Assembly (NCBI RefSeq): GCF_042453785.1
Contig: NC_091665.1
Span: 24,333,501 to 24,397,500, forward strand
Reading direction: 5' to 3'
DNA length: 64,000 bases
From: Malus domestica
Lineage: Eukaryota > Streptophyta > Magnoliopsida > Rosales > Rosaceae
Part shown: piece after piece, positions 10,885 through 45,540 of the stretch
Layout: each line of letters opens with the position of its first letter
Numbering within the stretch: position 1 is the stretch's first letter
Made by a program: the position numbers and the translations under genes
Notes under the pieces: model-generated
The model's input: only the letters and a program-made list of their open reading frames with translations
Told to the model about the DNA's origin: nothing
Databases searched by the model: none

Positions 10885-10992
10885 CTCTTTAAAAGACACC
10901 CCCAAGCACCTCGCTCTCCCAAAACCTCCAGAGCTTTCTTCTCTCCGTCAAAAACCCCAAGCGCTTTCTGAGTTCTCCACCTCTCTGTGAAA
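10885..10992 (+). promoter_or_regulatory. Putative core promoter and leader of PIP2
   Basis: A TATA-like tttaaaag lies at 10888-10895, about 100 bp before the PIP2 start codon at 10993. It sits in a pyrimidine-rich block (10730-10980) with many CTCC and CCAAAACC tracts, common in leaders of highly expressed plant genes. The transcription start cannot be fixed from sequence alone. Confidence 0.4.
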
Positions 10993-20475: not shown

Positions 20476-21080
20476 ATTTTCCGCCTTTCGAACCTTCTAT
20501 ATCTTTGCAGCTACCTGAAATCAATACTCCACCAATTAAACCTAGCTCCTGAAGTTCCTTTCTAGTACCCAACAAAATCCCAAAAATCCGGTGCTTTGTG
20601 CAAGACCGACAAACACAAAATCAGAAAATCGTAACCATCACTATGTTCGGCAGCCGAGAAAATTGAAAAGGATACAAGAACGAATAAATACTACAAGTTC
20701 TAGAAAACTAAGATACAATCAACAAAAAGTAAAAGGACTAGATGGAATTACAAAATTAAGCTTACTAATTTACTTAATTCGAAAAGAAAAAAAAAAACGA
20801 AAAAATTTGAACAATTTTAATGTCATTGTTTTATTTTGCTTAAACATTCATCGGATTATCGGCAACCAAACCAAATCTGACTCAACCCAACAACATACAG
20901 AACAATGGAAAATCGAATCTGAAAGAAATTGCGAAGATAAAGGGACGAACCTGCGCGACGAATTGATTCGATTGGCGAGCTCACTGCTTCTAGGTTTAGG
21001 TTTTGATTGGGGAAAGAGGATGAAGAACAAAGGGCTTAGGACTAACGCGCGAATTGGACGAATGCGATTCGAAGAAAAAG

Positions 21081-22641: not shown

Positions 22642-25600
22642 TCACAAGACTTTGTCCAACAACGGTTTACTAGGAAGATTTTCGACCTTGGACTTCATGT
22701 TACTAACACTGTCGCTCAAGACGGAAGATTTAAGCTCGAGCTCCCGCAGGTGGGCTTTCATTTCAGCAACTTGCTTCTTGGCATTGGCAACCTCCTTTTC
22801 TTTCAGAACCAGAGCCTCAATTTGCGGTTCAAGTTCTTTCCTTGTGGATTCTAAATCACGGTCGCAGTTTTCCTTTGCTACTTCGAATGCTCGATGCTGA
22901 GTGACGAGTTCAATGGATTCTTCATATTTGTTGATCAGACAGCGGAGCCAACCAACATCCATTCCCGAAGATTCTACATCCTTAAGCATAGATAACATTT
23001 GTTTGACTCTAGGCTTTGTCAGCTCCTTAATCGAAGTTCGCTTCAACTCTTGGACTATATAACATACACACTCGAGATAATAAGAGCGCATGGCAACTGA
23101 TTCCAATTGACAGCTTGCGGCTATATCACCATATTTTTCCATGATTGACTGGAGAATGGAAGAGAAACTTCCTTTCACACGGTATTTTCCCACAGAGACA
23201 CTGGCATCAGAAATAACAGATCGTGTATCGTCATCATCACTATCTTCAAAAGCATGGACAGTACCTGAGAAACTAAATCTTGAGTCGAAAGCTGATCCAG
23301 TAGAGCCTTCTCCTACATTGCTGACGGTATGATTTGAATCAACTCCAGGTGAATGATTAATATTTTCCTTGTCTTCCCCATTACTGGGTGGTTCACTAGC
23401 GATGTAAGTAGCACCATTCTCTCGAGGGTGTTTGGGATTTTCAGGCTGTCAGAGGGAGAGATAGCATAAGAAAGGAGTCAAAGCGATACACAAAAAAGAG
23501 AAAAAAAAACACAGAATTAGTAAAGAAATTGTGTGAGAGAGGGGGTGGAGAAAGAGCACACCATTGTGATAATTCCAGATGGTGGCACTAACAGAGAAGA
23601 CGGAACTGGATCCTTGTTGAATGAAGCATCTTTTACTTCAGCAGACGGTGGAGAATAAGATTTATGCTCACCATTCCCTATTTTAACCTCTTCCTTAATT
23701 TCACCGGATGCATTGTCAAGCTCTTCAGGGCGCATTGGTCTGGAACCAGGCCTTTGTCTGCCAAATATAGGATCATCAAGCACGGAGCCTGCAATTAAAG
23801 CGGACCAGATGTTATGAAATAATAGCATGAATACGTCACCATCCATGTGTACGTGTACATGGGAGGTGGAAGAGGACTGAATAAATAAATCCATAATCTC
23901 AGGTAGAAGAAGATTTATGCTCACCATTTTCTACTTGCACTATTTCTTCAGATCGAGAATCAGAGGGATAAATTACACCTCGACCAGTTGCATTCTTAAA
24001 CTCTTCAGAGGGCTTTGGCTGAGTTCCCTGCTTCCTTCTGCCGAATATAGGATCATCAAGGACAGAGCCTGCAGTTAAAACGCACCATAAATTAGGAAAA
24101 AGAAGTGTGATTACATCTGCACCCATGGGCAGGGGAAAGAGGATATGAATAAACACATTCACTATCGGTCAGGTGAAGGGAGATTTACGCTTACCGTTCT
24201 CTAATTTCACATTTTCCTTAGATGGAGATGACTGAGCATCTAAATGAGAAATCACACTTCGGACAACCTCCTGAGGGGTCCTTGGTCGGGATCCCTCCCT
24301 TTGTTTGCCCAATATAGGAATATCAACTATTGAACCTGCCATTCAAACAGACCATTAAAAAGGTGAACCGGGATTACAGTCCATGAGTATCATGTGCATG
24401 GCCAGTGCAAGGGGAATGAATAAATTCACATTCCGGTTATCCGCTGCACAACCACAAAAGAGCTTCTCTTGCCCAGGATCTCATAGAAACTCAAATGAAA
24501 CATTTGTATTCCAGTGCAGAACCTCGGGCATTCTTAAGGCAAGCGTGAAAGCAAATTATGCTTATAGCATTGCGGATTGGCTATGAATTGATGGCATTCC
24601 TAGGACAGGGGAATGAAATGCTGTCGGTTTTCCGTACCATTAAGAATGGCAATGCCATGAAAGGATAAATAAAGCGATGGTGAAACAAAAATATGTTACT
24701 TGGGAAGAGCATCTAATTGTTGTCAAATGGAAAACATTGGTTTGACAGATGGAATCATTTGCAGCTTGCTACTCTATCTAGCTTTTCTATTGTTGCAGTT
24801 CAGAAAAGGGAAAATGTACATATAACTTAACACGGTCTATTGAGAAGTCACCACACGAAAGCAGGGAAAAACCTGATTCTTTTTTGCCCCCACGAGGTTC
24901 GGCACCAACGGCTCTTTGGCGGAAGAATTCAGGGTCGTGGTAAGGATTGGATGCTCTTTTCTCTTCAGCCCCCCTTTTTTTGTACTCACCACCTTTAAAA
25001 CTGCTGCCAATATCTTTGGAAAAGAAACAAAATGAGAAAAAAATCTAAAATTTCCAACTTGTACTCAGAAAATGCTCAAAAGAAAAGATCCTTGAAGAAG
25101 AAACTTCTCAGAACCATTAATCCAAGGCAAGAAAACAATCTCGAACCAATAATTCACTACACCTCGTAAGGCCATGCTATTTTCTAATCAATCAAGACAG
25201 TAAGACACATCTTCACGGATAGATTTTGAAAGAGAGCCGCAAGCAATTCAAATTTAATAGAATTATATGACTGAACAATTGCCAATCACTTAACACAAAA
25301 CACAGACCAGATAATCCAAGCGGTAAAGATATGAGCAATAAGCAATAACATGAAATGCGTGCGAAAACACGGGCGTTCACATTTGGCAACAAACCAGTCA
25401 GAATTCATATTGAAAACAAATGCTTTGATTTTTTAAAGTACGAAAGCATTTTTTAATTGCGGTTAAATAAAAGTAAAACTAAAGTGCTCAAATAATTCCT
25501 GAACCAGATTAGCAATCAGTTTGGTGATGTTTTTTGGGCAGGGGACTAAGAGAATACATGTTGTTTAAGAACAGAACAATAACACAAACCTGATTTCTTT

Positions 25601-25716
25601 TTCGTAACCTTTCGGCCTTTCCCTTCAGCAATCTTTCTCAGGCAAATTTCAGTGCATTCATGGTAGGGATTGACTACATTAACACATTCGGGGTGTATTT
25701 TTCCGATCAGAGACAT
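22642..25716 (-). CDS. PEARLI-4 domain protein (phospholipase-like family)
   Basis: Six coding exons on the minus strand: 25716-25590, 25013-24873, 24335-24195, 24068-23925, 23788-23562 and 23445-22642, giving 527 residues in one frame. The last exon encodes the PEARLI-4 domain (about residues 345-527), starting VGKYRVKGSFSSILQSIMEK and including MRSYYLECVCYIVQELKR. It ends in a coiled coil rich in K, E and L (KELEPQIEALVLKEKEV...). The family is annotated phospholipase-like, but no catalytic motif is visible and the function is unknown. Exon 1 has HPECVNVVNPYHECTEICL, the segment also found in SYF2. Exon 2 has ASNPYHDPEFFRQRA. Exons 3-5 are three copies of one module (GS-V-D-PI-G-). The ATG of MSLIGKIHPEC was chosen because it follows a 3' splice site at the end of a 5' UTR intron (about 25742-26419). 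Confidence 0.88.
23562..24335 (-). repeat. Tandem triplication of a phase 1-1 exon module in the PEARLI-4 gene
   Basis: The exons starting at 24335, 24068 and 23788 all begin with the second base of a Gly codon and encode GSIVDIPILGKQREGSRPR, GSVLDDPIFGRRKQGTQPK and GSVLDDPIFGRQRPGSRPM. Start-to-start distances are 267 and 280 bp. Flanking intron bases are also similar (for example tttatgctcaccatt at the 3' border of the second unit and inside the third). This is a segmental duplication of exon plus intron. The third unit reads on through the position that acts as donor in the second. Confidence 0.85.
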
Positions 25717-26837
25717 CTCTCTATTGAGATCACCTACAACCCTGCAAATCATAACTCCATTAAACAATTTTGAATTTTTAATAACCAGAGACATAGAAGG
25801 TTCTGAAATTTATTTTTTTTTCAAATTAACAAACTTTCCTCAAGAACTGGGAATAATCAGCTGAGCATAAAACTGATATCCAATAATTCAAACCAATAAA
25901 AAAAGTTTTTTTTTTTTTTTTAATAAAACCATGAAAATGAACTCTCAGAAACTCTTGCAACTTCAATAAATTTTCATTTCGTTGATGATAAAACATAGAA
26001 AAAGAAAACTAAAAAGCTGAACCTTTCACAATCCGGCAAATAGCAAATAAAGCAAACAAGAATATCAACGTGCACCATGCAATTCAGTTCAATTCAATTC
26101 AACCAGTTAGCTAAGCTGCAATGGTAATCTTTTCACATGATAAGAAAACCCAAAAAACTGAAATCACAGCAGAAACTCAATCCCACTGGACTTTCCCACC
26201 TTTTCTCAGCAACCAAACAGAGTATGAAAAGCAGTCTTCAAAAAACAAGAACATGCACGCATCATTTCCCAAACTTTCTCATCACCAACCATAACATCAT
26301 TCATAAGCATAAAAATTTCAACCTTTTTAACAGACTCCCATGAACACAAACATCAAAAAACCACCAAAACCAACAAAAACAACAAACAAAATTTTAAGGG
26401 CCAGATTGAGAGAAAGACCTTGAATTCAATTGGGTTTTCTGGGTTTTCTGCTTTTGACCCTCTGGCGATTCAACAAGATAAAAGGAGGCGATTTATGTGT
26501 GAAGCGCAGAAAAAAGGACTAAAGTTGGGGGAAGAGCTCTCTTGTTTTGACCATGGCGACGACTAATAAGCTTTTTTTTTTCTTGAAAGCAAAAAAATAA
26601 ATAAATAGTCGAAAAAAATTCACAGCTCTCCCAATGTCAAAACGTTTGGGATTTCCACGTTGATTAGTAGGCAGTCGTCACGAGACAAACGCATGTGCCA
26701 CCTTTTCTTTCACAAAGGCACTTTTGGTGACGATCTGGCTGACGATCTTGTGGATCCTATTACTATAATTAATTAATTATAGCCCACCATTTTTGTTGAG
26801 GAAAATGAGGATTTTAGATTTAGGTTTATGTAAAGGG

Positions 26838-30626: not shown

Positions 30627-30789
30627 ATTAGTACCGATTGATCATGATCATTTATATAAAATGAACTCACTTGTATCATAATACGGTTTTATTTATGCAA
30701 TTGAGAAATGTGGTCTCTGTAGCATTGTTGAATTAAAATATATATTTTCTTGATTGGCAATAAGGAAATAAAAACAATTTTCTCTCCTT

Positions 30790-30856
30790 CATGCATGGGC
30801 TGCAGTTCACCAACCAAGGTAGCTAGCCAAGCCCTAAACACGTATATATAAAAAGA
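30790..30856 (+). promoter_or_regulatory. Core promoter of AMS copy 1: RY motif plus TATA box
   Basis: catgcatg (30790-30797, an RY element) is followed by ggctgcagttcaccaacca and then a TATA box, tatatataaaaag (about 30843-30854). The same order, with nearly the same bases, stands in front of the other two AMS copies (36973 and 41788). That conservation supports a shared promoter. The start codon is downstream of a 5' UTR intron. Confidence 0.65.
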
Positions 30857-31556: not shown

Positions 31557-34500
31557 ATGAAAATCATTATGCAAAATCTGATTGATAGGCTTAGACCCCT
31601 TGTGGGTTTGAAAGGCTGGGATTATTGTGTTCTATGGAAATTGAGTGAAGACCAAAGGTTAATTAAGAGAGGAACTACTTATTGTTCTGTTGCTAATTGA
31701 AATTAACTAAATATTACCCTCCTTATCTCTTCTTTGTGTGACAAATTTAAAGATTTTTTATATTTTTATTAGGTTTATTGAATGGATGGACTGTTGTTGT
31801 TCTGGGACTGATGGAAACACTCAGACAAATGGAGGACAAGAGCTTCTTTTTCCAGTTTATCCTGTCCTTCCATGCCGGGATATAATGCACCACTCACGAA
31901 CTAATTCTTGTGATCTTCTTGCCCAGCTTCCTTCTTCCCTGCCCTTAGAATCTGGGTACCTATAAATATTATTTAGCTTTCATTTTTTGTATTTTTTAAT
32001 CATTCAATTATAATTAGTACTAAAAGTAAAAACTAAATTGTGTTTGCACAGGATTTATGCACAGGCATTAATTTCAAACCAGATCATTTGGTTGAACTCT
32101 ACCAATAGAGATTTAAGTCATATGGTATAGTCGTTGTCCAATTCTTTTAGATATTTTTAAGAGAAAAAAAAATACCCTCTTTGTTGAGCATATAATTAAA
32201 TCTAACTCTATACTCATCATCACTTATTTTGCAGGAAAGAGATGAGACCAGGGTTTTGGTTCCAAGTGGTGGAGGGCTGATTGAGCTGTTTGTCTCTAGA
32301 GATGTATGATATATATGATGCTTCACTTTTAAACAGCTTCCTTTCAATTTGTTATTTTAGATCTTTCATGTGGAGAAATTCTTACAAACGCACATGCATA
32401 TGTGCCACCTCTCACACAAAAGTTGAGCCTAAGCTAGACCCAAATACAAAGGCTCACCTTTTGTATGAGAGTTGCCGCACGCAAACGTCTATATGCTAGT
32501 AGTTCTCGTGTACATGATATGAACCAACTATTTGAAACATTTGTGTCCTACATAAATTTTGTGAGAGATGGGGTATGTAAGGGTCACAATTTATAGTTTT
32601 GCCTGCAACTAACAAATTCACACATTACAATTTTTAAGTATTTGCATTTTTTTCCACTTTGACAGGTCTCTGAAGACCAACAAGTGATTGACTTTATCAC
32701 TGCCCAATGCAACATTTCACATGAGCAAGATATCCTGCTTAGTGCAAGCTGCAATGCAAGCTTCACCGTGGATATAAACAACATGAGCAATGACATACGA
32801 CCAAAGGCATTTCTTGTAGATGATAATGGGGGAAATGATCATCTAAACAACAATCATAGTTTCCAGCAGCAACCTGTTTTACCGGCAATGGCATTGGATC
32901 ACAATTCGAATTTGCCATGCGATATCTCAGTTGACCAAATCCGCCTATGCAGCACTTCCCCAATGAATTTCCTCCAAAATAGTAACAATAATAATGTCTA
33001 TAATTTTGATCAGGGTTCACATGAGTCTTTGGGAGAGATGGGGCTTCAAGCTGATACTAATGCACAAAACTTGCATAATAATATTCAAGTTAATGAGGGA
33101 ATAGAAAACATTGAGCAGCAGGTTGTGGATGATCAAGACTCAATTAAACACGAGGGTGGAAGAACTGCTGATCATTCAGCTTCAGATTGCAGTGATCAGT
33201 TTGATGATGATGGTGGCACGAATTATAGGAGAAGAACAGGAAAAAAGCCTCAGTCAAAAAACCTTGTGGCGGAGAGGAAGAGAAGGAAGAAACTTAATGA
33301 GAGGCTCTATCACCTCCGCTCATTGGTTCCCAACATTTCTAAGGTGATGACCATGGCATTATTATTATTTTTTCAATTGTACTAGATGGACTTTACACTT
33401 TCCTATGTGATAGTTGATAATTAATTAACAGTTGACAGTAGTAACTAGTGTGACAAGTATGTTGTCACATCATGTGGTCGGGCTAATGTTATATAAAATA
33501 CGTGACATCTTTAGCAGAATCTAATGCCTACTCATTTTGATTCACAGATGGACAAGGCTTCCATACTCGGGGACGCGATTGAGTTCGTGAAGGAGTTGCA
33601 GAGGCAAGAAAAAGAACTCCAAGAGGAGCTTGAACAGCATTCAGATGATGGAGGATCTAAGAAAAGGAAATCCAATAATATCTGTGGAAACCACACCAAT
33701 TTCCAGCCAGAAACTCTGAGTCAAAACGGAAATACCACTGCAAATAAACAAGAAAATGATGAGCTTCCAAATGGGTTTCGTGTGGGAACAGCAGGAGACA
33801 TTGGCAATATCTCTAAACAAAAAAACCAAGACTCAGATATTACTAAGGACAGGGGACAAGAGATGGAGGTATAACTTAATCTTATATATGTTTTTTAAAT
33901 TTGAAATTTCAGATAACAAAAGATTAATGGAATAATATGGTTGCAGCCACAAGTAGGGGTTACTCAGTTGGATGGAAATGAATTCTTTGTGACTGTATTC
34001 TGTGAGCACAAGCCAGGAGGGTTTGTGAGATTGATGGAGGCATTGGATTCTTTAGGCTTGGAAGTGACCAATGCAAATGTGACTAGCTTCAGAAGCCTTG
34101 TCTCTAACGTCTTCAAAGTAGAGGTAACCAATTATCTCCTAATTCTTACCTAATTATGTAGCTCATGACAACTGTTAATGTTAATGTTAGTGAGAAATAT
34201 TTCAAGAATCTTACTATAAAAGACAAAATTCCTCATTTATAAACTAAGTGTCAGATAAACTAATTGACAGGTCCAAGAACAGTTGGATCAATGAGTTTTT
34301 ATTTTCTTTCTTTTTCTTCAAACCGGTGCTTTGAGTGTTTTTGACATAACCAAGAGTTTTTATTTGTGAAAAGCACTTAATTTTTTATTATATGTTAATT
34401 ACGCAGAAAAAGGACACTGAAATAGTTCAAGCTGATCATGTGAGGGACTCATTGCTCGAGATAACAAGGAATCCATCATCAAAAGGGTGGCCTGAGATGA

Positions 34501-34619
34501 TTGCTAAAGCATCAGGGAATGTCAGTCCATTGGATCATTTTCAGCATGATCATCACCAACAACACCAGCTCCACGATTACCATGCTTCTTCATACCACCT
34601 ACAACACCTTTATAGTTAA
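31557..34619 (+). CDS. AMS-like bHLH transcription factor, tandem copy 1 (full length, diverged)
   Basis: Eight exons: 31557-31657, 31773-31955, 32052-32124, 32235-32303, 32666-33343, 33548-33868, 33947-34123 and 34407-34619, giving 604 residues. Arabidopsis AMS is about 571. AMS-type bHLH proteins act in the tapetum nucleus and switch on pollen-wall genes. The N-terminal MYC_N region is whole ([20 protein letters not shown], then [10 protein letters not shown]). The basic region [16 protein letters not shown] keeps the Glu-Arg E-box contacts (bHLH about residues 338-390). The second helix starts [18 protein letters not shown]. The C-terminal ACT-like domain (about 476-560) contains [20 protein letters not shown], and the tail is His-rich. 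A 5' UTR intron ends just before the ATG (31550). MKIIMQ has a second in-frame ATG at 31569. All splice sites are canonical, so it is probably active, but it is more diverged than copy 3. Confidence 0.9.
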
Positions 34620-35321
34620 TTTAGCATAATCTACTAATTAATTATGTATTAAGCATTCTGATGAGAACAACTAGCGAGACAGATTATGGACATGCTCGAC
34701 ATTCGTTATGCGGTGATTTATGGTCTTTTGGGCCAAATACATGTTTGCTAGATCAAAACTACGTTTGAAGAGTTGAGATAATTTTTGTAATTTCCTGTTT
34801 CTCTTTGTTTCGAAGCTACGATTTGGTAAGAGTTTTTAAACACCCAAACAAGTTGTATTCAGACTATCATGTCATATTATCAAATATAATTTGATAGAGT
34901 TTGTTAATGTTGAGAGGGAGAGATCGAGAGAGAAGATCAGAATTTCAAGAACTAGAGAGAGAAAGGTTTTAGAGAGAGAAACTGCAGAACTGTTATATTG
35001 GTTTTGTTAACCTTCAAGCTATTATTAACTAACTAAGGCTTACAATCTTGTGACAAGTGGCACAATCCTAGCCACTATCTATATCTTTACAAAGTTCTCA
35101 TATCAAAAATACTTAAAATATCGTTTTTAATATAGTTAAAACACTATTTTGAAGAAAAAAAACATTATTTCTAGAAATTTTAAGTATTTTCAAAACGGTG
35201 TTTTGAGGAGTTTTTTGTTTTTTTCTTTTCCCCTAGAAACATCGTTCCTAGAAAATTCTTGTTTCTAGGACTTAACCCTAGATTAACCCTGTGCTCTTTT
35301 CTTTTGTTATTATTTATTATA

Positions 35322-35475
35322 AGGAAAACTAATGAAAAGGACTTGAAAACCTTGAGTTTTAATGATAAGGACAAAATAAAGGGTAAAGTAAATAGTACCA
35401 GGATTGACTTTTTAGTGTAAAAATGTGGTTTTTCGTTAAAGTGAACAGTACCGGGTGCTTTTCGTTAAAGTTCCC
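35322..35475 (-). mobile_element. Mutator-type MITE, family B, copy 2
   Basis: Reverse orientation relative to the other two copies: starts aggaaaactaatgaaaagga and ends cgttaaagttccc. It is flanked by a perfect 9-bp direct repeat, tttattata (35313-35321 and 35476-35484). At 154 bp it is almost the same length as the copy in AMS copy 3. Confidence 0.9.
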
Positions 35476-35802
35476 TTTATTATATCCTCCTTTTTCACCC
35501 AATAACTAAGAGCCTGTAGACTATTCAATATGATGCAACTTCATTATGCTTGTATATGTACTTGGAAATTGGCTTATAATGATTGGGCCATGGGTTACTC
35601 TTGGAAATTCGCTACATATATGTGAGGGAGCATTTAAGAGTTTGAATTCCTTGTTTATGAAAGAAAAGACTTTGCATATACTTGTAAGGAATTTTGAATT
35701 ACTCTCCATATTGCTTATTGATGCTAAAAAACCTCAACTTCCTTCACACAAAACATGATTAATTTTAAGAGCTGAGAGGCTTCTTGGAAGATCTTACACA
35801 TG

Positions 35803-36327
35803 CCTAGCACCATCCACATTTAACTTAAAGGTCATAGATGGAGTGAAAGTGGAGGATTAATTAAAGATTGACATGGTAACTGGATCATTGGTTTTATTGC
35901 TAAAAAAGGAGTTGGGGAAGTTCTCCATGCTGAGCTTTGGGCTTTGTTTTATGAGTTGAAGATAGCTAAAGCTAGAAATTTCTCTCATCTTATTGTGGAG
36001 GTTGATTCTGCTCTGGTGGTCTCATTTGTTATTCGCCTAGCCTTAATCATCATCTCTATGGTCTTATCTCGGAATGGAGAAGTTTGATAATAGATAACTG
36101 GAGCTGTAATTTGCAGAATGTTCATAGAAAGCGTAGTTTTGCAGCTGAAGGGTTAGCCAAATTAGGTTTAAATAGCAAGATGGATTTTCAAGAGCTTCCT
36201 CAGTCTCCTCCTTGTTTAGTTCAAACTCTTTCCGATGACTGCTCTGGAGTTGCTAGTTAAAATAGTTGTTCTTTAGGTGTTTCATTTTTTTCTTCTTCCA
36301 TGTTACCCCAAAAAAGAAAAGAAAAAA
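35803..36327 (+). mobile_element. 5'-truncated LINE with RNase H-like fragment and A-rich tail
   Basis: A perfect 15-bp target duplication, aagatcttacacatg, flanks it at 35788-35802 and 36328-36342. The element ends in an A-rich tail (about 36309-36327). Its body encodes part of an RNase H-like (RVT_3) domain of plant L1-type LINEs: GNWIIGFIAKKGVGEVLHAE, ELWALFYELKIAKARNFSHL, IVEVDSAL. The frame is then disrupted by a change after SFVI and by stops near GEV, and the reverse transcriptase and everything upstream are missing. This is a classic 5'-truncated insertion, about 525 bp, and not functional. Confidence 0.88.
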
Positions 36328-36655
36328 AAGATCTTACACATGAGAATATATCACAATTAATAGAATACATAAGACAGGAGCCTAACTAATCACTAGCTAA
36401 TCTGAAGTAAACAATAATAGTTTTACAGGAAGATGACGTGTGATTAACAAACTTCAGTAACAATTTTACAAGTACATGGCATGTGATAACAAACTTTTGA
36501 CTAAGAGGTGACTTGATGAGATTATTGTGTTTTGGCAATGAGTTGGCATCTAATGTGTGGAAGATACCATACCTCTATCCTTTCTTATTGCCTGTGCGAT
36601 ATAGGTTTGAACACAACCAAATCCAAAAGTAGGCAATTTGTGTTCACGGGTTGCC

Positions 36656-36770
36656 ATTTCAGTTTTTTTAGCCAATTGCCCCTTCGGTTTAGGTTTCTTA
36701 GCCAATTGTCCATTCAATTTAGATTTTTTTAGTCAATTGCCGCTTCGGTTTAGTTTTTTTAGCTTTATGG
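36656..36770. repeat. Minisatellite, three degenerate units of about 35 bp
   Basis: The unit tttagccaattgccccttcg + gtttaggtttc is repeated three times with changes (gccaattgtccattcaattt, gtcaattgccgcttcggttt). It lies about 200-300 bp upstream of the promoter motif of AMS copy 2. Confidence 0.75.
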
Positions 36771-36972
36771 AGTAGTTGAAACATGAGCAAATGCATATAC
36801 CAAACCTAAGTGAATGAAAAACTTTAGAAAAGTTTCAGCTCATTCATGCAATATGCTCTCATATTTACCAAGCCATCCTCTTTAATTACCGACAGAGAAG
36901 GGAACAAAAAAACACAAAAAGAAATTAATTAGTTTGTGTAGTTTTTTATTAAGTTCTCTCTCACGCTACACT

Positions 36973-37022
36973 CATGCATGGACTTCAGTTCACCTACCAA
37001 ACTCTCTCCATAAAAAAGGAAA
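36973..37022 (+). promoter_or_regulatory. Core promoter of AMS copy 2: RY motif and TATA-like box
   Basis: catgcatg (36973-36980) then gacttcagttcacctaccaa, followed by ccataaaaaagg near 37008-37020 at the TATA position. It matches the promoter blocks of copies 1 and 3. The TATA box is weaker (cataaaaa). Confidence 0.55.
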
Positions 37023-37275
37023 CACTTTTGTCAAATGCAAGAGTCCCCAATTGTTTTACTTGATTTGATCAATTGACTGAAGTTATGGATCTCTACCTTT
37101 GCTTTATCTGCTTCCTCGTTTCTTCTTTCGCCCTCGTCGCGTTTTTCTTACCGACATGTGCAGGCAAAAGAGGTAGCTATATATTTTTCTTCTCTCAGTT
37201 CTTGTTATGTACTCAACTAATTCGGTGAGGTTTAGGAATCTGAAATTAATGTTTTATCAATCGTTTACAGGTGGC

Positions 37276-38473
37276 ATGAACATGATGATGACCCTGCCAA
37301 GCCTCAGACAGATGCGTGGATCTCTAGTGCGTTTGAAAAGTTGGAAACCGAGTGAAGACCAAAGGTTATAATTAGCTAGCTACTCTCCATTTCTTCCTTT
37401 TCCCAGTGACTTTTTCAGTTTTTTTTAACGTTTACTGATGAACTGATTGTTGCTGTAGGAATGAAAAAGTACCTCAATCAAACTTTGAAGCTGAAATGAA
37501 GAGAAGGAATAAGATTAACGACATATACCATATCCTTCGCACTTTGCTTCCCAACAATACTGGGGTGATGATCAATTGCATTAAGAGTTTATTTTTATTT
37601 TCAGATTAGTATTATCAGCGTTTTCAGTTAGACATATACAGAATAATGGGAAAGTGCGCTGACAGTTGATATGTTAATGAACAATTGATGTGATTAGTAC
37701 GCTGTCACGTCTTGTATTCAGCTAATGTGATTACAATCTTTAGGAGAAGCTCTAATATATATAATGCCTAATCATCTTGATTCTTAGATGGACAGAGCTT
37801 CCGTCATCGGGGACACAATTGCATACGTGTCGAAGTTGCAGAGGCAAGTAAAAGAACTTCAAAAAGAGCTTGAATGTAACTCAAATGGTGGAGGAAAGGA
37901 AACTAGTTATATTTGTGGAAACAATGGCAATTTACAATCAGAGTTTCTCCGTCAAATTGAAACTATCATTGCAAACACACCAGAAAATGAAAAGATGGAG
38001 GTATAGACTAAACTAAAATCTTATACTTTTTAAATTTGGATGTATATTTGGAGTTCTATCTCTTTAGGTGATCAAAAGAATGTGAAACTAATTGCAGCCA
38101 CAAGTGGAAGTAACTGAGTTGGATGTTAATGAATTCTCTGTGACTGTATTATGTGAGCACAAGCCAGGAGGGTTTGTAAGACTGATGGAGGCATTGGATA
38201 CTTTAGGCTTGGAAGTAACCTATGCAAATGCGACTAGCTTCAAAACCCTGATCTTTAATGTCTTTAAAGTACAGGTAATTAACGTTATCTAAATTATCTT
38301 TAATACCCCAAGGCATTTTATTATATTTTATTAATATTAACTGAGAACCATTATGTTTGGTTGTGCAGAAAAATGACAGTACCAGTAAAATAGTTCAAGC
38401 TGATCATGTTAAGGACTCTTTGCTGGAGATAACTCAGAAACTGTCAATGGAATCCATCATAAGGGTGGCCTGA
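37276..38473 (+). CDS. Shortened AMS-like bHLH gene, tandem copy 2 (lacks MYC_N region)
   Basis: Five exons keep one open frame: 37276-37364, 37459-37564, 37788-38000, 38098-38274 and 38369-38473, giving 229 residues. Against copies 1 and 3 it has lost exons 2-4 and most of exon 5, so the N-terminal MYC_N/activation region is gone. What remains is the first-exon tag (ending SWKPSEDQR), a bHLH with altered basic region (SNFEAEMKRRNKINDIYHIL: Glu and the Arg pair kept, the usual Glu-Arg Arg is Met), the second helix MDRASVIGDTIAYVSKLQ, and the ACT-like domain ([20 protein letters not shown]). The C-terminus stops early (IIRVA) and lacks the His-rich tail. It could be a dimerising modulator of the full-length copies, or a pseudogene that has not yet acquired stops. 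An alternative start at 37085 is discussed in the findings. Confidence 0.7.
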
Positions 38474-39259
38474 GAATCTGAGATGATGGCTAAAGCATTA
38501 TATATATGGAATGGCAGATCAGTGGATCATCACTTTTATCATGATCATTACCAATAACACCATCTCTACAGTTATTTCGTCATGCCACTTACAACATCTT
38601 TATCATTGGTTGATCATAATCTACTCAGTTCATGTATGAGTTAAGTAGGAGCATTCGGTTTCTTTCACTTCATGTCGCACGAACTTAGTTATAATGGTTA
38701 TTTTAAATATACTTCATGTTTTTTCTTTTATTGGTGGAGGTGGGTTTTGAACATACGAGCATCAATGAGTTCAGAACTTCTTTAAAATAATACGAAAATA
38801 TGTTTTGTGATTTTGAACTTCGCAAGACGCACGCATATAAAGAGCTCATAGTTTAGTATAAAATGAATATTTTTAATTTTTGTAATACTCCATTAAATTT
38901 AAAAAATGATGTTATTTATCTCTCTAAATATTTTTCCTTAAGTAGCCGTTACCACCTATCACTACAATTACTAATCTTACATCACCATCATCATCACCAC
39001 CACCATCGTTGCCACCGTTGCTGCCCCCACGATTGTCACTGTAAAAAGTGACTTTCCTCGTATAGCATAGAACAATTGTACACATATTTTGACAAGCTAT
39101 GGAGTTAGTGTGTTCTACAGTTACAACGGGAAAGAATACAACATAAATATAGAGTTAGAGCCTAATAACAACATAACGAAAATACATAGAGTTACAGCCT
39201 GATAACAACATCGGAAAGATCCCTTTATACGACCATAGTACTCCCTAAATAATGTTGAA

Positions 39260-39650
39260 TTAATGCTTATAACTCCCTTAAGACTCGGCCACAAACTTGA
39301 CTCGGAGTAGGAGACAAGTTTGGAAACGAGAAGCTCAAAACAGTCTGTATCTAAGCCTTTTGTAAAGACATCGGCAAGTTGATGTGTGGGGGGAATGGAC
39401 TAAACGCGGTGACTGCCTAATGCAACTCTCTCACAAAGTGATAATCAATGGCTATATGTTTGGTCCAGGCATGAAAAACTGCATTGGCAGCTAAATATGT
39501 TGCTGAGAGATTATCACAGTTGATAAGAACCGGACGAGTGAGTGGACAACGAAGCTCTTGCAAGAGACCTTGGATCCATATTGTATCCACAAAAGCATAA
39601 GCAAGAGCTTGATACTCTGCTTCCGCAAGAGAGCGGTAGCAACAAAGGTG
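39260..39650 (-). mobile_element. Ty1/copia retrotransposon fossil, RNase H end of pol, broken
   Basis: On the minus strand the translation matches the C-terminal end of copia-type pol (RNase H): short motifs such as SLAEAEYQALAYA and LADVFTKGLD are recognisable. Only this terminal part is present, and the rest of the element (gag, integrase, most of reverse transcriptase) is absent. DNA to its left (about 39050-39260) may be the untranslated 3' part. It looks old, broken and inactive. Confidence 0.8.
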
Positions 39651-39868
39651 TGGTAATAGTAATGGTGGTGTAAGGTTAGTGTTTGTCCTCTAAAACTCAA
39701 ATTTCTTCACTTTACATCCCGAAACTCTATTTTCGATTCACGATGATTTTTCGTCAACTCTGTCAATAAAATTGATAATACTCAACGTGGCATACTCCGT
39801 CAATAAAACTAAAAATACTCAACGTGGCATGAGTGAGACCCACTTACCTACTAATATAATTGTTTAAG

Positions 39869-40215
39869 AAAGTTGAGGTTTCACCATAAAACCAATTGGC
39901 AATATTGAGAGTAGTCAACTATTTATAAGCACATGCAAGGTCACTCCTCTCATCAATGTGGGATTCGTTCTCAACACTCCCCTCACGTGTGATGAATTTT
40001 CAAGCCTAACACGTGAACAACACAATATCAGTGACATGTGACGTGGAGCACGTGTGGTCGTTGGGCTTCACACGTGGGACGACAACCTACTATGATACCA
40101 AGAAGAAAGTTGAGGTTCCACCATAAAACTAATTGGCAATATGGGGAGTAGTCCAACTACTTATAAATACGTGCAACATTTCTCCTCTTATCAATATGAA
40201 ATTCATTCACAATAA
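39869..40215. repeat. Pair of direct repeats of about 105 bp, 236 bp apart
   Basis: agaaagttgaggtttcacca ... ttggcaatattgagagtagt ... ctcatcaatgtgggattcgt at 39869-39975 recurs as agaaagttgaggttccacca ... ttggcaatatggggagtagt ... cttatcaatatgaaattcat at about 40104-40213. A tatgataccaagaa lead-in precedes the second copy. From memory such blocks are widely dispersed in plant genomes and may be retroelement ends, but I cannot assign a family. Confidence 0.6.
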
Positions 40216-40678
40216 CTTCCACATCACAATTTTCTAACATAAAAAATTCGACCAAACCCAGACGGGAACCTACTAGTCCCTCTCTCTCCCCACGGTACAT
40301 GGATTTTTATCATGTAGTAAGATTGAGCAAATTTCCTACATGGATTCAAATTTTGGTCACCTTCTTATCTAATAGTCATGGATATTTTTCCAAACTTGAT
40401 AAACAAATATCAAATTTTGCATAAGATGAATGCATAGAAGTTGGAGTTATAAACAATTGTCAAATGAGAAATGATAAGCACACATTTTTTTAGCTTCTTA
40501 TACATTCTTATGTAATTCTGGTTGGTGGTTCTGTTTGACCTATTCAAGGATAGTTGGGAGTGCTGTGATTTTTTTTTTCAAAACTGCTTATGCTTTTTTT
40601 GTGAAAATAAACAGCTGTAAAAAAAAAAAAAAAGGTAAGTGTTTGGTAAACTGTAGTGCTAAAAGTGCTTTGAGCAAC

Positions 40679-40825
40679 CACTTAGATACTACGGTTTAGT
40701 GGTATTCCTCTTCACTTGTAAGTGAGAGGTCTTGGGTTTGATTTTTGCCAAAAGCGAATTTGAACCACGTTATTGCCACCACCTCCCCGTAGAAAATATC
40801 GTTTGTTATAAAAATAAAATAAAAA
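40679..40825 (+). mobile_element. tRNA-type SINE, family 1
   Basis: cacttagatactacggttta with gtggtattcctcttcacttg, then a diverged box B (gggtttgatttt), the cgaatttgaaccac body, cacctccccgtagaaaatat and an A-rich tail (aaaaataaaataaaaac). It aligns over its full length with the copy at 14956-15128. The target duplication is not clear. Confidence 0.72.
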
Positions 40826-40861
40826 CAACAACGCATTAGGTTTAGGGGAAAGAGTCAATGG

Positions 40862-40955
40862 TTGTCAATATGAAAGTTGCATTAAGTCGGGGGTAGGATT
40901 GTCAATATGAAAGTTGCATCAATGGTAGGATTGTCAATATGAAAGTTGCATTAAT
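40862..40955. repeat. Three-unit tandem repeat
   Basis: The unit tgtcaatatgaaagttgcat plus a short spacer (ggtaggat) occurs three times in a row with spacers of different length. There is no coding capacity. Confidence 0.8.
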
Positions 40956-41763
40956 TGGTATTGTTCACCCACCTAGGTTTAGGAGAAAGAATCGGACGTG
41001 GAATTGTCAATACACCCAAGTCCAAACCCAAGGTTCAAGCCCAATTTTGTTCTCCAATGTCCATCTCTTCAATCACTTTGAGAGAGAGAGAGAGACAAAT
41101 TCTTACAAAGTGTGAGAAACTTTTGGTGGTTATCAATGTGAGACAATGAGATTTCTAAAAAAAAACTACAACAAAATAAAGTAAAACCACTAGCAAGGCC
41201 CTTCAAGAGCTAGAACATTTCTGGAATGTCCCGGATGATTTTTTTTTTTTTATAAACTTATATTGCGGAAAAATAACATGAAATAAGTCTTATGATGATT
41301 TTGTATAAAAATTTATTGAACTTTGCAAATATGATTATAAACCGCGAGTTATAGCTCATAGTTTTTGTGAGGCCACTATAGGGGGTGCATGAAGGGCTTT
41401 TAATCCTTAATTAGGTTGAACTGCGTAGCTTTGCTGACTGTTGGGCATTTCATCTAAAAGGCGGACAATCATCCGAGCTAGCTTGCATTTCCTTCACCAA
41501 CTGTTTGAATGGAATGCTCACGTATATATGGTTTCCGTTTTTGGTTTAAAGCATTTGGAGAATTGTAGTAGTTGAAACATGAGCAAATACATATACCAAA
41601 CCAAAATGAATGAAAAACTTTAACAATGTCAGTTACCACTTTGCACGCTATATTAGCTCATGCATTATGCTCCTCCCATCATTACCCAGCCATCCTCCTT
41701 AGTTATCCAAAAAAAAAAAGGAGAAAAAAGAAACACAAAAAATAATTAAACTTATTAATTGAG

Positions 41764-41788
41764 CTCTCTCTCTCTCTCTCTCTCTCTC
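41764..41788. repeat. CT microsatellite abutting the RY motif of AMS copy 3
   Basis: A run of about twelve CT dinucleotides directly followed by catgcatg (41788). CT runs near the start of transcription (Y patches) are common in plant promoters. Confidence 0.85.
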
Positions 41789-41835
41789 ATGCATGGACTG
41801 CAGTTTACCTACCAAGTTCTTGCCATATAAAAAGT
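41788..41835 (+). promoter_or_regulatory. Core promoter of AMS copy 3: RY motif plus TATA box
   Basis: catgcatg (41788-41795), then gactgcagtttacctaccaa, then catataaaaag (about 41824-41834) as TATA box. The same arrangement precedes the two other copies. Confidence 0.65.
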
Positions 41836-42016
41836 GTTTTCTTCTTGATTTTATTGAAAGCTACAAAATTCTTCTGAGTTTGCTGAGGTTTTAAATATGA
41901 TGATGGTGCAGTTAACTATTGCTGCCAACTGAACTGATACTCTTAAGATTCTGTGTTGGAATTCGAAATCAGTTTACTCTGCGTTTTCCCCGTATTTTCA
42001 ATCGTTATAGGCGGCA

Positions 42017-45000
42017 ATGATGATCATGCCATACCTCATCCATAGGCTTAGATCTCTTGTGGGTTTGAAAGGCTGGGACTGTTGTGTTCTCTGGAAACTA
42101 AGTGAAGACCAAAGGTTATCAAACCATAACTACATTATCAATCTTTCAATTTCTTCATGTCCCAATATATATGTATATGTGCGCGTGCGTGTATGTGACT
42201 TTCTTGTGGTTTATTTTTAGGTTTATTGAGTTGATTGATTGTTGCTGTGCTGGGACTGAGATCACCCAAACTGATGCTGGACAAAATCTTCCTTTCCCTC
42301 CTCCAGTGCTTGCATGTAGGGATACAATCTTACAGCATCCAAGAACCACATCTTGTGATCTTCTAGCCCAAATACCTTCTTCCATGCCCCTACACTCCGG
42401 GTATAACCTATTTATTTGTTTATCAGTTTTCTCCTTCATCCCTCCATTTTTTTTTTCCCGTATAAACAAAGTGTTCTCCTTCAAGGCGGCCTGACACGTT
42501 ATGATGTGCGATCCAAATTGACGACATAGAAAAATGAAAGAGTGTATCACACTTTCTTTTGTGTACTTTGATTAATTTGTTAACCATTTGGCCTGGCCTC
42601 ATTTAAATGTGTGATTATTGACAGGATTTATGCAGAGACCTTGATTTCAAACCAAACCAGTTGGTTAAACTTCTCTAACAACACATTTTTAAGTACATTA
42701 GAGGTATGTACCACTAGCTCCCTTTCTCCTATTTCCAGAAGGCACAGCCCCTTTGATATCGAGCTCATACTTTTCTTGATTACACTTGCAGGAAACTATT
42801 GGGACCAGGGTTGTGATTCCAATACCAGGAGGAATAATCGAGCTTCTTGTTACCAAACAAGTAATGTTTCCAGTATCTTTAACTTTTATTTGTATATTTA
42901 ACGGCATTCATGCACATTTCGTATGAGCCATAAAGTAAACCGTTTTCCTTCACTATCCGGAAAAAAATGATCTTTAGCATGGCAGTTTTTTTATTCTTCT
43001 GTTTTCTGTGACTGCAGGTATTTGAAGATCAGCATGTTATTGATTTTGTCACAGCCCAATACAACCTCTCACTAGAGGAGGAGGCCCTGACTAGCATAAC
43101 TGGTACGCGCAAAATGAGTGAAGTCGGATCAAAGCGATTTTTAGACCATCTTTCATTCAGAACTTCTTTAGAGAATTTGAATCTGCATCCATATGATGTA
43201 TCCATGGAGAGAACAAGCAATTCTCCAATGAACTTCTCGCAGCAATTTACTAATTACAACTCGGGAAACCTAACCAAGAATAATATTGATATTTCTTCAG
43301 CAGAAAATGGGTTTCAAGAGATGGAGGCGATGCAGATGTCTATCACTAGTGAGAGACAACGGCACATGGATATGCAACAATATATGGAGGCATTAGTACC
43401 AAACATTGATCAGCAAGAGGGTAACGAGAAGCGGGACTCAAATACACATGAGGCAGAGGGACAAGCTGGGGATTTTATGTCGGATTGCAGCGATCAGATT
43501 GATGAGGAGGCGGATACAAAATATCAAAGGAGGACAGGGAAACGGCCTCAAGCCAAAAACCTTATAGCTGAGAGAAAGAGAAGGAAGAAGCTTAATGACA
43601 GACTTTATGCTCTTAGGTCTTTGGTTCCCATTATTTCTAAGGTACCCATCGCATTTCATCATCTTGCATCTTTTCTTTTGAAACCTCATTTGATTTGTGT
43701 CATGTCTTGCTTCGTTAATGTGTTGAATCAATTCAGGCTTTATAAACGATATGAAAAGAAAGAACTCACTAGTAACCTCACATAATAGGCTCATAAGAAG
43801 ACCTATTCATAGTCAAGTTAGCTAGGGCAATGTATCCACCTCTCTTCTACACCCAAGTTCGAATCTCCCTCCCTGCAGTTTAGATTAAATTCGAATATCG
43901 CTCGACTATAAAAGAAATTGGCTCATTGAAAATGCTATCTTTTATCTAATTCCAACTCCCTTTTAATTCACAGTTGGACAGGGCCTCCATTCTTGGGGAT
44001 GCAATTGAATATGTGAAGCAGCTGCAGAAGCAAGCTAAACAGCTTCAAGATGAGCTTGATGATCATGCAGAGGATGATGCTGCTAAGAACAATGTCAAAT
44101 CAGAAATTCAGAGCCGAAGTGGAGTTGATCACATTAGGCCTAAAACTGATGATCATCAAGATGATCATAAAGCTTCAAATGGAATTCATTTTGGAACACC
44201 GGGAGACTGCAGCGTCTTCAAACAAAGCCGAGATTATTCATATGATGTCCATGATCACAAGACAGAACAGATGGAGGTACATATCTTGTGTTCTTCTCTT
44301 CTTGAAGTTTTTCTTTTTTCGGGAACTTCACCTACATTCCTTCCTCTTTTTAGCCATTGGATTGAATAAAGGGAGTTTCAATGAAAAGTCCGCGGTACTA
44401 TTCACTTTAACGAAAAACCACATTTTTACACTAAAAAGTCAAACCTGGTACTATTCATTTTACTCTTTATCTTGTCCTTATCGTTAAAGCTCAAAAGTTT
44501 TCAAGTCATTTTCATTTGTTTTCCTTTGAATAAATCCATGTAAAAACAATGGGAGGAAAGCATAAGGAGAAAACGGGATTGTGAAAACGACTACCCTTCT
44601 CTATTTGGGATTAATTATTTCTTAGGTATTAATCAAAGAAATGGAAAATGTTGCAGCCCCAAGTGGAAGTGGCTCAATTGGACGGAAACCAGTTCTTTGT
44701 GAAAGTGTTCTGTGAGCAAAAGCCTGGTGGATTTGAGAGGTTGATGGAGGCTTTGAGTTCACTGTGCCTGGAAGTTACTAATGCAAATGTGACTACCTTC
44801 AGATGCCTTGTGTCCAATGTTTTCATTGTAGAGGTTAGTTGCTTTTCTAGCTCAAAACTCTAAATTTTTTCCAACTGTTGCACATAGTTAGGACATTTTT
44901 TCGGTATACAAGGAGTGTACACAATCCCTCGTCTCACAACTATTTGGCACATAATCAGTATGTGAGGGTGGTTTTTTGTGAGTGCAACATTGTGTGTACT

Positions 45001-45540
45001 TGTTGTATGGAAGGAATTTTCCTTAGTAAGATGAGGCAAGCTCGTGTACACCTTCGCCTTATCTGTGTGAGAGAGTTGAGAAAACATATTGGGAGAAAAG
45101 TTAGAGGGTTGTAACATCTACCGTACAATTTAAAGCAGCATTAATCTTACATTAAGTGATTTTGTTCATTTTTTTTTGTTCCCAGAAAAAGAATACTGAT
45201 ATGGTTGAAGCTGATGATGTGAGAGAAAACATATTGGGAGAAAAGTTAGAGGGTTGTAACATCTATTGTACAATTTAAAGTAGCATTAATCTTACATTAA
45301 GTGATTTTGTTCATTTTTTTTCGTTGCCAGAAAAAGGATACTGATATGGTTGAAGCTGATGATGTGAGAGACTCCTTGCTAGAGCTAATAAGGAACCCGT
45401 TAAGACCGCGCAACGAGACAGCTAAAACGGAGGAAAATGGCGTTGGCTTGGACAACCATCATGACCACCACCACCACCAACACCTCCACAATCACCATTT
45501 TAGTCCCCTCCACTTGCACCATCTTCCTAATGAAGCATAA
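42017..45540 (+). CDS. AMS: ABORTED MICROSPORES-type bHLH transcription factor, tandem copy 3 (best AMS match)
   Basis: Eight exons: 42017-42114, 42221-42400, 42625-42703, 42792-42860, 43018-43641, 43974-44276, 44657-44833 and 45331-45540, giving 579 residues. AMS is a nuclear bHLH activator in tapetum cells, needed for sporopollenin and pollen-wall genes. The MYC_N region ([30 protein letters not shown]), the acidic lead-in SDCSDQIDEEADTKYQRRTG, the basic region [20 protein letters not shown] and helix 2 [18 protein letters not shown] are all close to Arabidopsis AMS as I remember it. bHLH is at about 321-372. The C-terminal ACT-like domain has EQKPGGFERLMEALSSLCLE and the tail is His-rich. 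Intron 5 holds a SINE and intron 6 a MITE. A 145-bp tandem duplication makes two possible acceptors for exon 8. The second (45331) gives the full-length protein. Confidence 0.93.
43795..43915 (+). mobile_element. SINE-like element, family 2, in intron 5 of AMS copy 3
   Basis: gttagctagggcaatgtatc ... acacccaagttcgaatctcc ... cagtttagattaaat, with a box B-like gttcgaatctcc. Direct repeats aataggctcat (43784-43794) and aattggctcat (43916-43926) match at 10 of 11 bases. A related, more decayed copy lies at about 46150-46250. Confidence 0.72.
44371..44525 (+). mobile_element. Mutator-type MITE, family B, copy 3, in intron 6 of AMS copy 3
   Basis: gggagtttcaatgaaaagtc ... acactaaaaagtcaaacctg ... 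catttgttttcct, 155 bp. A perfect 9-bp target duplication, ttgaataaa, lies at 44362-44370 and 44526-44534. It sits 94 bp after the exon 6 donor. Confidence 0.9.
45081..45370 (+). repeat. AMS: 145-bp tandem duplication across the intron 7/exon 8 border of AMS copy 3
   Basis: Unit 1 (45081-45225) and unit 2 (45226-45370) start aaaacatattgggagaaaag and end gctgatgatgtgagag. They differ at only a few bases. Each holds the polypyrimidine tract, the AG acceptor and the first 40 bases of exon 8. The acceptors are ttcccag (unit 1) and ttgccag (unit 2). High identity points to a recent event. Confidence 0.95.

What the first reader, a model, noticed from the sequence alone, without database searches (positions are those of the whole stretch)
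31557..45540. Tandem triplication of AMS, the tapetum bHLH regulator, with three different fates
Three genes in a row have the same exon junctions and protein landmarks (MYC_N, bHLH, ACT-like, His-rich tail). Copy 3 is AMS-like throughout, copy 1 is full length but diverged, and copy 2 has lost the N-terminal half while its frame stayed open. AMS is a single gene in Arabidopsis (established knowledge). A cluster like this could spread tapetum regulation over several proteins that may dimerise with each other.
Basis: partly seen in the sequence, partly recalled or inferred. Interest (0 to 1): 0.8.

Follow-up and report, generated by a model that had tools for sequence, protein, structure and literature searches.

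The report
Tandem AMS genes, middle one chimeric
A plant chromosome carries two intact copies, side by side, of a gene that controls pollen-wall formation, and between them a shortened hybrid of the two that was probably made by misaligned chromosome exchange and now evolves with little constraint; this is mostly ordinary, because a neighbouring pair of this gene is already on record in peach.

Summary
Three AMS-type bHLH genes lie head to tail at 31557-45540. Copies 1 (604 aa) and 3 (579 aa) are intact eight-exon genes with MYC_N, bHLH and ACT-like domains, under purifying selection (pairwise omega 0.31, dS about 1.0). (a) Copy 2 has no His-rich tail in frame. (b) Copy 1, not copy 3, scores as the more consensus-like in two of three domains. 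(c) Copy 2 is better explained as a chimera than as a copy that lost its N-terminal half: its promoter, exon 1 and intron 1 side with copy 3, and its 3' part sides with copy 1 (informative sites 36:15 against 24:83, Fisher p 9e-9). The order 1 - (5' of 3 + 3' of 1) - 3 is what one unequal crossover in a two-gene array gives. Copy 2 has also lost exons 2-4 and most of exon 5. It evolves at omega about 0.7-1, yet keeps an open, spliceable HLH-ACT frame more often than neutrality predicts (joint P about 0.005). A two-gene AMS array is in print for peach (Prupe.8G166800, Prupe.8G166900). The hybrid third copy is the modest new element. Expression is untested.

The parts
31557..34619 (+). Copy 1: intact AMS-type bHLH gene, 8 exons (31557-31657, 31773-31955, 32052-32124, 32235-32303, 32666-33343, 33548-33868, 33947-34123, 34407-34619), 604 aa
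   Evidence: model; Pfam MYC_N, HLH, ACT-like; omega 0.14 on its branch; shortest branch in both trees, recalled outgroups
36768..37275 (+). Copy 2 promoter/5' flank, copy-3-like (36768-37017 aligns with 41564-41832)
   Evidence: blastn E 5e-33, 70% identity with 41 gap positions to copy 3; only 29 nt to copy 1; K80 2-3 0.59, 1-3 0.85, 1-2 0.91
37276..38473 (+). Copy 2: chimeric 5-exon gene (37276-37364, 37459-37564, 37788-38000, 38098-38274, 38369-38473), 229 aa, HLH + ACT-like only; His-rich tail lost by frameshift
37430..37550 (+). Deletion scar and probable crossover zone: remnant of the start of exon 2, then the 3' part of the bHLH exon with a new acceptor (TGTAG, exon begins 37459); best-fit switch from copy-3-like to copy-1-like at 37528, with near-equal fits at 37534-37554 and at 37826
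38474..38645 (+). Copy 2 decayed tail and 3' flank, homologous to copy 1 (to 34653)
42017..45540 (+). Copy 3: intact AMS-type bHLH gene, 8 exons (42017-42114, 42221-42400, 42625-42703, 42792-42860, 43018-43641, 43974-44276, 44657-44833, 45331-45540), 579 aa
45078..45367 (+). Tandem 145-bp duplication (139 of 145 identical) that doubles the last acceptor and the start of the last exon of copy 3; the first acceptor (exon from 45186) would give a 540-aa form without the His-rich tail
30789..30817 (+). Conserved promoter block of copy 1 (CATGCATG and ACCAACC)
36972..37000 (+). Same block in the copy 2 promoter (CATGCATG and ACCTACC)
41787..41815 (+). Same block in the copy 3 promoter (CATGCATG and ACCTACC)

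Best explanation
An AMS (ABORTED MICROSPORES) tandem array. An old duplication gave two full-length AMS paralogues, copies 1 and 3, both still constrained and most likely both working tapetum transcription factors that pair through HLH and ACT-like domains. Later, copy 3 on one chromatid mispaired with copy 1 on the other. One unequal crossover in or near the conserved bHLH exon placed a hybrid gene between them, with the promoter and 5' end of copy 3 and the 3' half of copy 1. An internal deletion, at the same time or later, removed exons 2-4 and most of exon 5, and with them MYC_N. The frame survived through a new splice acceptor at the scar. The 229-aa product would be an HLH-ACT protein without MYC_N and with a less basic DNA-binding region, evolving under relaxed constraint. 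Shown here: gene models, mixed ancestry of copy 2, selection estimates. Inferred: the crossover mechanism, the order of crossover and deletion, tapetum expression, dimerisation. My reading is that copy 2 coded for protein during much of its history and is now decaying or of minor effect.
For: Chimera: the copy 2 promoter aligns to copy 3 over 250 nt (E 5e-33) and to copy 1 over 29 nt only, while downstream copy 2 aligns better to copy 1 (ACT exon 86% against 72%). Sites favouring copy 3: copy 1 are 36:15 before the bHLH exon and 24:83 from it on, Fisher p 8.6e-9; exon 1 alone 9:2, p 1.5e-4; best switch at 37528, reached by 0 of 5000 permutations. The 5' flank of copy 2 matches copy 3 and its 3' flank copy 1, as one crossover in a two-gene array predicts. 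Constraint on copies 1 and 3: omega 0.31 (bootstrap 0.24-0.41) over 557 codons; branch omegas 0.14 and 0.19. Relaxation on copy 2: omega 1.00 against 0.18 background, lnL -1467.05 against -1476.37 for one omega. Frame retention at 0.17 substitutions per site: P(no stop) 0.018 over 176 codons; 146 codons together with 12 splice bases, joint P 0.0045. AMS identity: and flanking PEARLI-4, FAM210 and UBE2O-type genes. A peach AMS pair is in print.
Against: The bHLH fragment itself gives no clear parent (7:9 sites), and a switch as far down as 37826 fits almost as well. Plain duplication of copy 1 with later turnover of the copy 1 promoter is not strictly excluded. No genome is held for the window, so no relative could be fetched to see the two-gene state. 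Omega for copy 2 depends on the block: 1.00 over 176 codons, 0.69 over 146 and 0.36 over 83 ACT-side codons; in the last fit the copy 1 branch collapses to 0.01, and the joint fit gives 0.54 there, not different from 1 (p 0.21). Joint P for frame and splice survival ranges from 0.038 to 0.0003 over the assumed rates. The C-terminal tree puts copy 3 with Arabidopsis AMS apart from copies 1 and 2 (86/89), so which copy is the direct orthologue, and how old the first duplication is, stay open. There are no expression data.
Confidence: 0.72

Rival explanations
1. One reading: copy 2 is a tandem duplicate of copy 1 that lost its N-terminal half, and the resemblance of its 5' end to copy 3 is shared ancestry that copy 1 lost.
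For: The 3' half of copy 2 is clearly closest to copy 1. The copy 1 5' flank has diverged or been replaced (K80 to copy 3 0.85).
Against: In exon 1, sites shared by 2 and 3 against 1 outnumber those shared by 1 and 2 against 3 by 9:2, the reverse of the 3' half. Copy 1 has the shortest branch in the trees.
Confidence: 0.15
2. Copy 2 is a working natural inhibitor: an HLH-ACT protein without MYC_N, made under a copy-3-type promoter, that ties up copies 1/3 or their bHLH partners, like small HLH competitors elsewhere in plants (recalled).
For: Frame and splice sites kept more often than neutrality predicts. HLH and ACT-like domains still above the Pfam cut-offs. ACT-side omega 0.36 (grid 0.2-0.7). 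Omega on copy 2 differs between blocks (lnL -1451.64 against -1460.21 for one value), which plain neutrality would not give. Fewer basic residues than copies 1 and 3 (5 against 7 in the 17 positions ending at the Arg pair). The promoter block is kept.
Against: HLH codons show no constraint (bHLH block omega 2.18, partly a possible chimera artefact; helix-2 block 1.88, grid 0.4-4). Glu and the Arg pair of the basic region are kept, so loss of DNA binding is not shown. The tail is lost. No expression data.
Confidence: 0.2
3. Copy 2 is a neutral pseudogene whose open frame is luck.
For: Omega 1.00 over 176 codons. Frameshifted tail, with a stop in the old frame as well (read by hand from the alignment).
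Against: If the whole branch was neutral, 4.8 stops are expected over 176 codons and none is seen, P 0.005. The coding length differences from copy 1 in exons 6-8 are 9, 99 and 6 nt, all multiples of three, before the 10-nt one that ends the frame, against 4 of 9 multiples of three in the three introns.
Confidence: 0.35
4. The genes belong to another bHLH group (for example DYT1 or MYC2/FIT types), not AMS.
Against: MYC_N + bHLH + ACT-like + His-rich tail. 49% and 48% identity of copies 1 and 3 to recalled AMS against 29% and 26% to recalled DYT1. The neighbours are those I recall for the Arabidopsis AMS locus.
Confidence: 0.03

Closest known systems
Peach AMS pair, Prupe.8G166800 and Prupe.8G166900
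   Same: Both called AMS (PMC11986580, passages); named as adjacent genes that cluster together in bHLH subfamily IIIa (PMC5901983, passage). The first is reported in anther cells by in situ hybridisation; the second is high in ecodormancy in four Prunus species (PMC9573011, passages).
   Different: Two genes named against three here. Whether they match copies 1 and 3, and whether a hybrid third copy exists in peach, could not be tested.
Arabidopsis AMS (At2g16910) and rice TDR
   Same: Domain order, His-rich tail and sequence (sequences recalled). AMS interacts with bHLH89/91 and acts downstream of TDF1 (PMC5215365, passages).
Apple MdbHLH009
   Same: Reported as a single-apple-gene correspondence with AtbHLH021, which is AMS by recall (PMC5428380, passages).
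   Different: The passages name one correspondence and no AMS cluster; the supplementary cluster table could not be read.
Chimeric genes from unequal crossing-over in tandem arrays (for example opsins, Lepore-type globins; recalled)
   Same: Hybrid between two neighbouring parents; here the 5' part of the downstream gene on the 3' part of the upstream one.
   Different: Here with an internal deletion and relaxed evolution.

Membership tests
AMS/TDR bHLH | N-terminal MYC_N domain | tested here: met
   Copy 1 E 3.6e-19, copy 3 E 5.8e-17; not found in copy 2. Met for 2 of 3, so copy 2 is filed as a hybrid derivative, not as a full member.
AMS/TDR bHLH | bHLH domain with Glu and Arg-Arg in the basic region | tested here: met
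   HLH 41.8, 33.9 and 43.8 bits for copies 1, 2, 3. Copy 2 keeps E..RR but has 5 basic residues against 7.
AMS/TDR bHLH | C-terminal ACT-like domain | tested here: met
   50.7, 45.0 and 42.8 bits for copies 1, 2, 3.
AMS/TDR bHLH | His-rich C-terminal tail | tested here: met
   Present in copies 1 and 3, out of frame in copy 2. Met for 2 of 3.
AMS/TDR bHLH | Groups with AMS/TDR, not with other subfamily IIIa bHLHs, in a tree | tested here: inconclusive
Identities favour AMS/TDR over DYT1.
AMS/TDR bHLH | Conserved gene neighbourhood of the AMS locus | tested here: inconclusive
   PEARLI-4, FAM210 and UBE2O-type/E2 domains flank the array. The Arabidopsis order is recalled; a paper search for At2g16910 with At2g16920 found 0 papers.
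AMS/TDR bHLH | Tapetum expression and need for pollen wall | not testable with these tools
   No expression data; no genome held.
Unequal-crossover chimera | 5' and 3' parts with different nearest paralogues | tested here: met
   36:15 against 24:83 informative sites, p 8.6e-9.
Unequal-crossover chimera | Both flanks of the hybrid match the flanks of the two parents | tested here: met
   5' flank matches copy 3, 3' flank matches copy 1; the middle of the spacers does not align.
Unequal-crossover chimera | Two-gene state without the hybrid in a relative | not testable with these tools
   Only the printed names of two adjacent peach genes were seen.

The most novel reading that the evidence does not exclude
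Unequal crossing-over has created a native antagonist of the tapetum master regulator: an HLH-ACT-only AMS protein under its sibling's promoter, kept open by selection while its HLH changes, which tunes AMS dimer pools and hence pollen-wall timing.
Probability: 0.15. Interest if true: 0.5.

Novelty: new member of a known kind. Interest (0 to 1): 0.3.

Why it matters
It shows how a regulator that is single in Arabidopsis can be a two-gene system elsewhere, so a knock-out of one 'AMS' in such a tree may not give sterility. It also offers a hybrid gene whose expression would say whether small HLH-ACT proteins can arise by crossover. A 29-nt promoter block common to all three copies is a candidate for a shared tapetum switch.

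Tried and rejected
Searching the window's own genome failed because none is held. PDB gives MYC2 and non-plant proteins (25 matches, 15 matches), so no AMS structure. A paper search with six guessed gene names matched unrelated acronyms in the part of the list shown (25 of 356 listed). A search for At2g16910 with At2g16920 gave 0 papers. AMS with pear and tandem terms gave 1 paper, on spinach. AMS, DYT1 and 'tandem duplicated' gave 4 papers (two bHLH surveys, one on MS1/MS188, one on maize), seen as a listing only. Passages of a peach pollen-fertility study (PMC7911534) and of a peach sporopollenin study (PMC3556096) mention AMS only in general terms; a Prunus dormancy meta-analysis reports AMS homologues in ecodormancy without gene numbers in the passages seen (PMC8222350). 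I considered and rejected that copy 3 is the plain AMS and copy 1 the diverged one, though the C-terminal tree pairs copy 3 with recalled AMS. Pairwise dN/dS involving copy 2 is set aside except for the ACT block, because that alignment put copy 2's exon 1 against the middle region of copy 1; replace it. One comparison (copy 2 equal to background on the ACT side) uses models that are not strictly nested, so its p 0.013 is rough. Loss of DNA binding by copy 2 was considered and not claimed. No structure prediction was run, because a spliced protein is not read from the window letter for letter.
Full report
What is there. Exon models built from the sequence give three + strand genes. Copy 1 spans 31557-34619 (8 exons, 604 aa), copy 2 37276-38473 (5 exons, 229 aa) and copy 3 42017-45540 (8 exons, 579 aa). 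All 18 introns begin GT and end AG. Exon phases of copies 1 and 3 are identical. Pfam finds MYC_N, HLH and the plant bHLH ACT-like domain in copies 1 and 3 and only HLH and ACT-like above the cut-offs in copy 2. Repeat search shows the three-copy families directly, and tblastn at E 0.01 finds no fourth copy in the window. This is far beyond chance.

Are they AMS? The tree cannot test this by itself: it has one very long DYT1 row, and none of its inner branches reached the mark for firm support. Flanking genes are PEARLI-4 (22.6-23.4 kb, -), a FAM210 domain gene (46.5 kb, +), E2 and UBE2O-type domains (50.1-55.3 kb, -, taken as one gene) and a proteasome Rpn3 gene (60.6-61.6 kb, -). I recall At2g16900, At2g16910 (AMS) and At2g16920 as PEARLI-4, AMS and UBC23, which would make this the syntenic locus; a paper search for At2g16910 with At2g16920 found nothing. 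An apple survey reports MdbHLH009 as syntenic with AtbHLH021 (PMC5428380, passages seen).

Which copy is the conserved one? Copy 1 outscores copy 3 on MYC_N and ACT-like and is slightly behind on HLH. With recalled TDR as outgroup, copy 3 has 56 unique changes against 26 in copy 1 (p 0.0009); with recalled AMS the difference is not significant (60 against 51, p 0.39). Copy 1 has the shortest branch in both trees. On the other side, the C-terminal tree pairs copy 3 with Arabidopsis AMS (86/89), leaving copies 1 and 2 outside that pair, and the full-length fork is open.

Copy 2 is a chimera. Its upstream 250 nt align with the copy 3 promoter (36768-37017 with 41564-41832, E 5e-33, 70% identity with gaps); to the copy 1 promoter only 29 nt align. 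Exon 1, intron 1 and the remnant of exon 2 also side with copy 3. Further down it sides with copy 1, as far as 38645 beyond the stop. Counting sites where copy 2 agrees with just one of the others gives 36 (copy 3) to 15 (copy 1) on the left and 24 to 83 on the right (Fisher p 8.6e-9); exon 1 alone gives 9 to 2 (p 1.5e-4). The best single switch point is 37528, inside the bHLH exon. Fits within about one log unit run from 37534 to 37554, and one lies at 37826. 0 of 5000 permutations do as well as the best. The bHLH fragment itself is undecided (7 to 9). The order copy 1 - hybrid - copy 3, with the downstream gene's front on the upstream gene's back, is what one unequal crossover between members of a two-gene array gives. 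The deletion that joins the start of exon 2 to the 3' part of exon 5 may have come with it or later. At the scar the old acceptor is gone and a new one (TGTAG) keeps the frame; read by hand from the sequence, splicing at the old position would run into a stop.

Selection. Copies 1 and 3: dS 0.995, dN 0.310, omega 0.312 (bootstrap 0.24-0.41) over 557 codons. A three-branch codon model over 176 codons shared with copy 2 gives omega 0.14 (copy 1), 1.08 (copy 2) and 0.19 (copy 3). One omega for all fits worse (lnL -1476.37) than a separate value for copy 2 (-1467.05, omega 1.00), and fixing copy 2 at 1 costs nothing. Letting copy 2 differ by block helps (-1451.64 against -1460.21): bHLH 2.18, exon 6 1.20, exon 7 0.48, exon 8 0.69. 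Without the 30-codon bHLH block, whose parent is unclear, copy 2 has 0.69 (grid 0.4-1.5); the 83 ACT-side codons alone give 0.36 (0.2-0.7; p 0.024 against 1, p 0.017 against background), in a fit where the copy 1 branch shrinks to 0.01. The joint fit gives 0.54 there, not different from 1 (p 0.21) and roughly above background (p 0.013, models not strictly nested). So constraint on copy 2 is much weaker than on its siblings, and perhaps gone in the HLH.

Yet the frame is open. If the whole copy 2 branch were neutral, 4.8 stops would be expected in 176 codons, and none would be seen with P 0.005. With a reconstructed start and 0.17 substitutions per site (92 of 528 by parsimony), P is 0.018; for 146 codons together with the 12 splice bases of the three shared introns the joint P is 0.0045, ranging from 0.038 to 0.0003 for rates 0.10-0.25. 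Coding length differences between copies 1 and 2 are 6 and 18 nt in exon 1, and 9, 99 and 6 nt and then 10 nt in exons 6-8; the last ends the protein early. In the three introns 4 of 9 are multiples of three. My reading is that copy 2 coded for protein for much of its life and is now under weak selection or none.

How it probably works. In Arabidopsis AMS acts below TDF1, binds E-boxes and interacts with bHLH89/91 (PMC5215365, passages seen). Copies 1 and 3 have every domain of AMS. Copy 2 lacks MYC_N and has 5 basic residues against 7 in the basic region, but keeps Glu and Arg-Arg, so it may still touch DNA; if expressed it would mainly pair or compete (inference). A 29-nt block holding CATGCATG and ACC[A/T]ACC is identical in 25 of 29 columns in all three promoters, and 200 Markov-resampled sets reach at most 14; this null does not allow for common descent. 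ACCWACCAA occurs three times in the window, once in each promoter; the number alone is unremarkable (13 of 100 shuffles have as many), the placement is not. By recall this looks like an R2R3-MYB AC element, so a TDF1-type MYB is the first candidate.

What is already known. Peach Prupe.8G166800 and 8G166900 are both called AMS (PMC11986580, passages) and are named as adjacent genes that cluster together in subfamily IIIa (PMC5901983, passage). The second is among genes high in ecodormancy in four Prunus species (PMC9573011, passages). So a tandem AMS pair is in print. I found no account of a third, hybrid copy in the listings (20 of 31 listed; 25 of 356 listed), 22, 23, 24, 25 and 38, nor in the passages of the papers opened; these cover open-licence papers only, and supplements could not be read.

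Verdict. The hybrid copy 2 is a clear, testable case of gene birth by unequal crossing-over with relaxed evolution. dS near 1 between copies 1 and 3 says their duplication is old, and the ACT-block dS of 0.36 between copies 1 and 2, against 1.05 for 1-3 and 1.27 for 2-3, says the hybrid is younger. No calendar age is claimed.

Noticed in passing
window 45078-45367: A young 145-bp tandem duplication (139 of 145 identical) doubles the last acceptor and exon start of copy 3; use of the first acceptor would give a 540-aa protein without the His-rich tail.
   Followed up: partly
window 30789-30817, 36972-37000, 41787-41815: A 29-nt promoter block with CATGCATG and ACC[A/T]ACC, 25 of 29 columns identical in all three copies, against at most 14 in 200 resampled sets that ignore common descent. 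Possible MYB target (recalled).
   Followed up: partly
window 44375-44520, 35327-35469 (-), 8691-8830: Three copies (the second and third 88% and 82% identical to the first) of a short interspersed element, the first inside intron 6 of copy 3. It resembles a repeat that I recall as common in apple and pear DNA, which would point to the apple tribe; not tested.
   Followed up: partly
window 39121-39689 (-): Open stretches between copies 2 and 3 with a motif that I recall from Copia RNase H; the two stretches scanned matched no Pfam family.
   Followed up: partly
window 10972-11741: Aquaporin (MIP) gene on the + strand.
   Followed up: no
window 19797-25809 (-): A PEARLI-4 domain at 22645-23448, surrounded by fragments that repeat each other (VLDDPIFGR and NPYHEC[ST]E, each in two ORFs), as if this neighbour were itself duplicated; the five side fragments scanned match no Pfam family.
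   Followed up: partly
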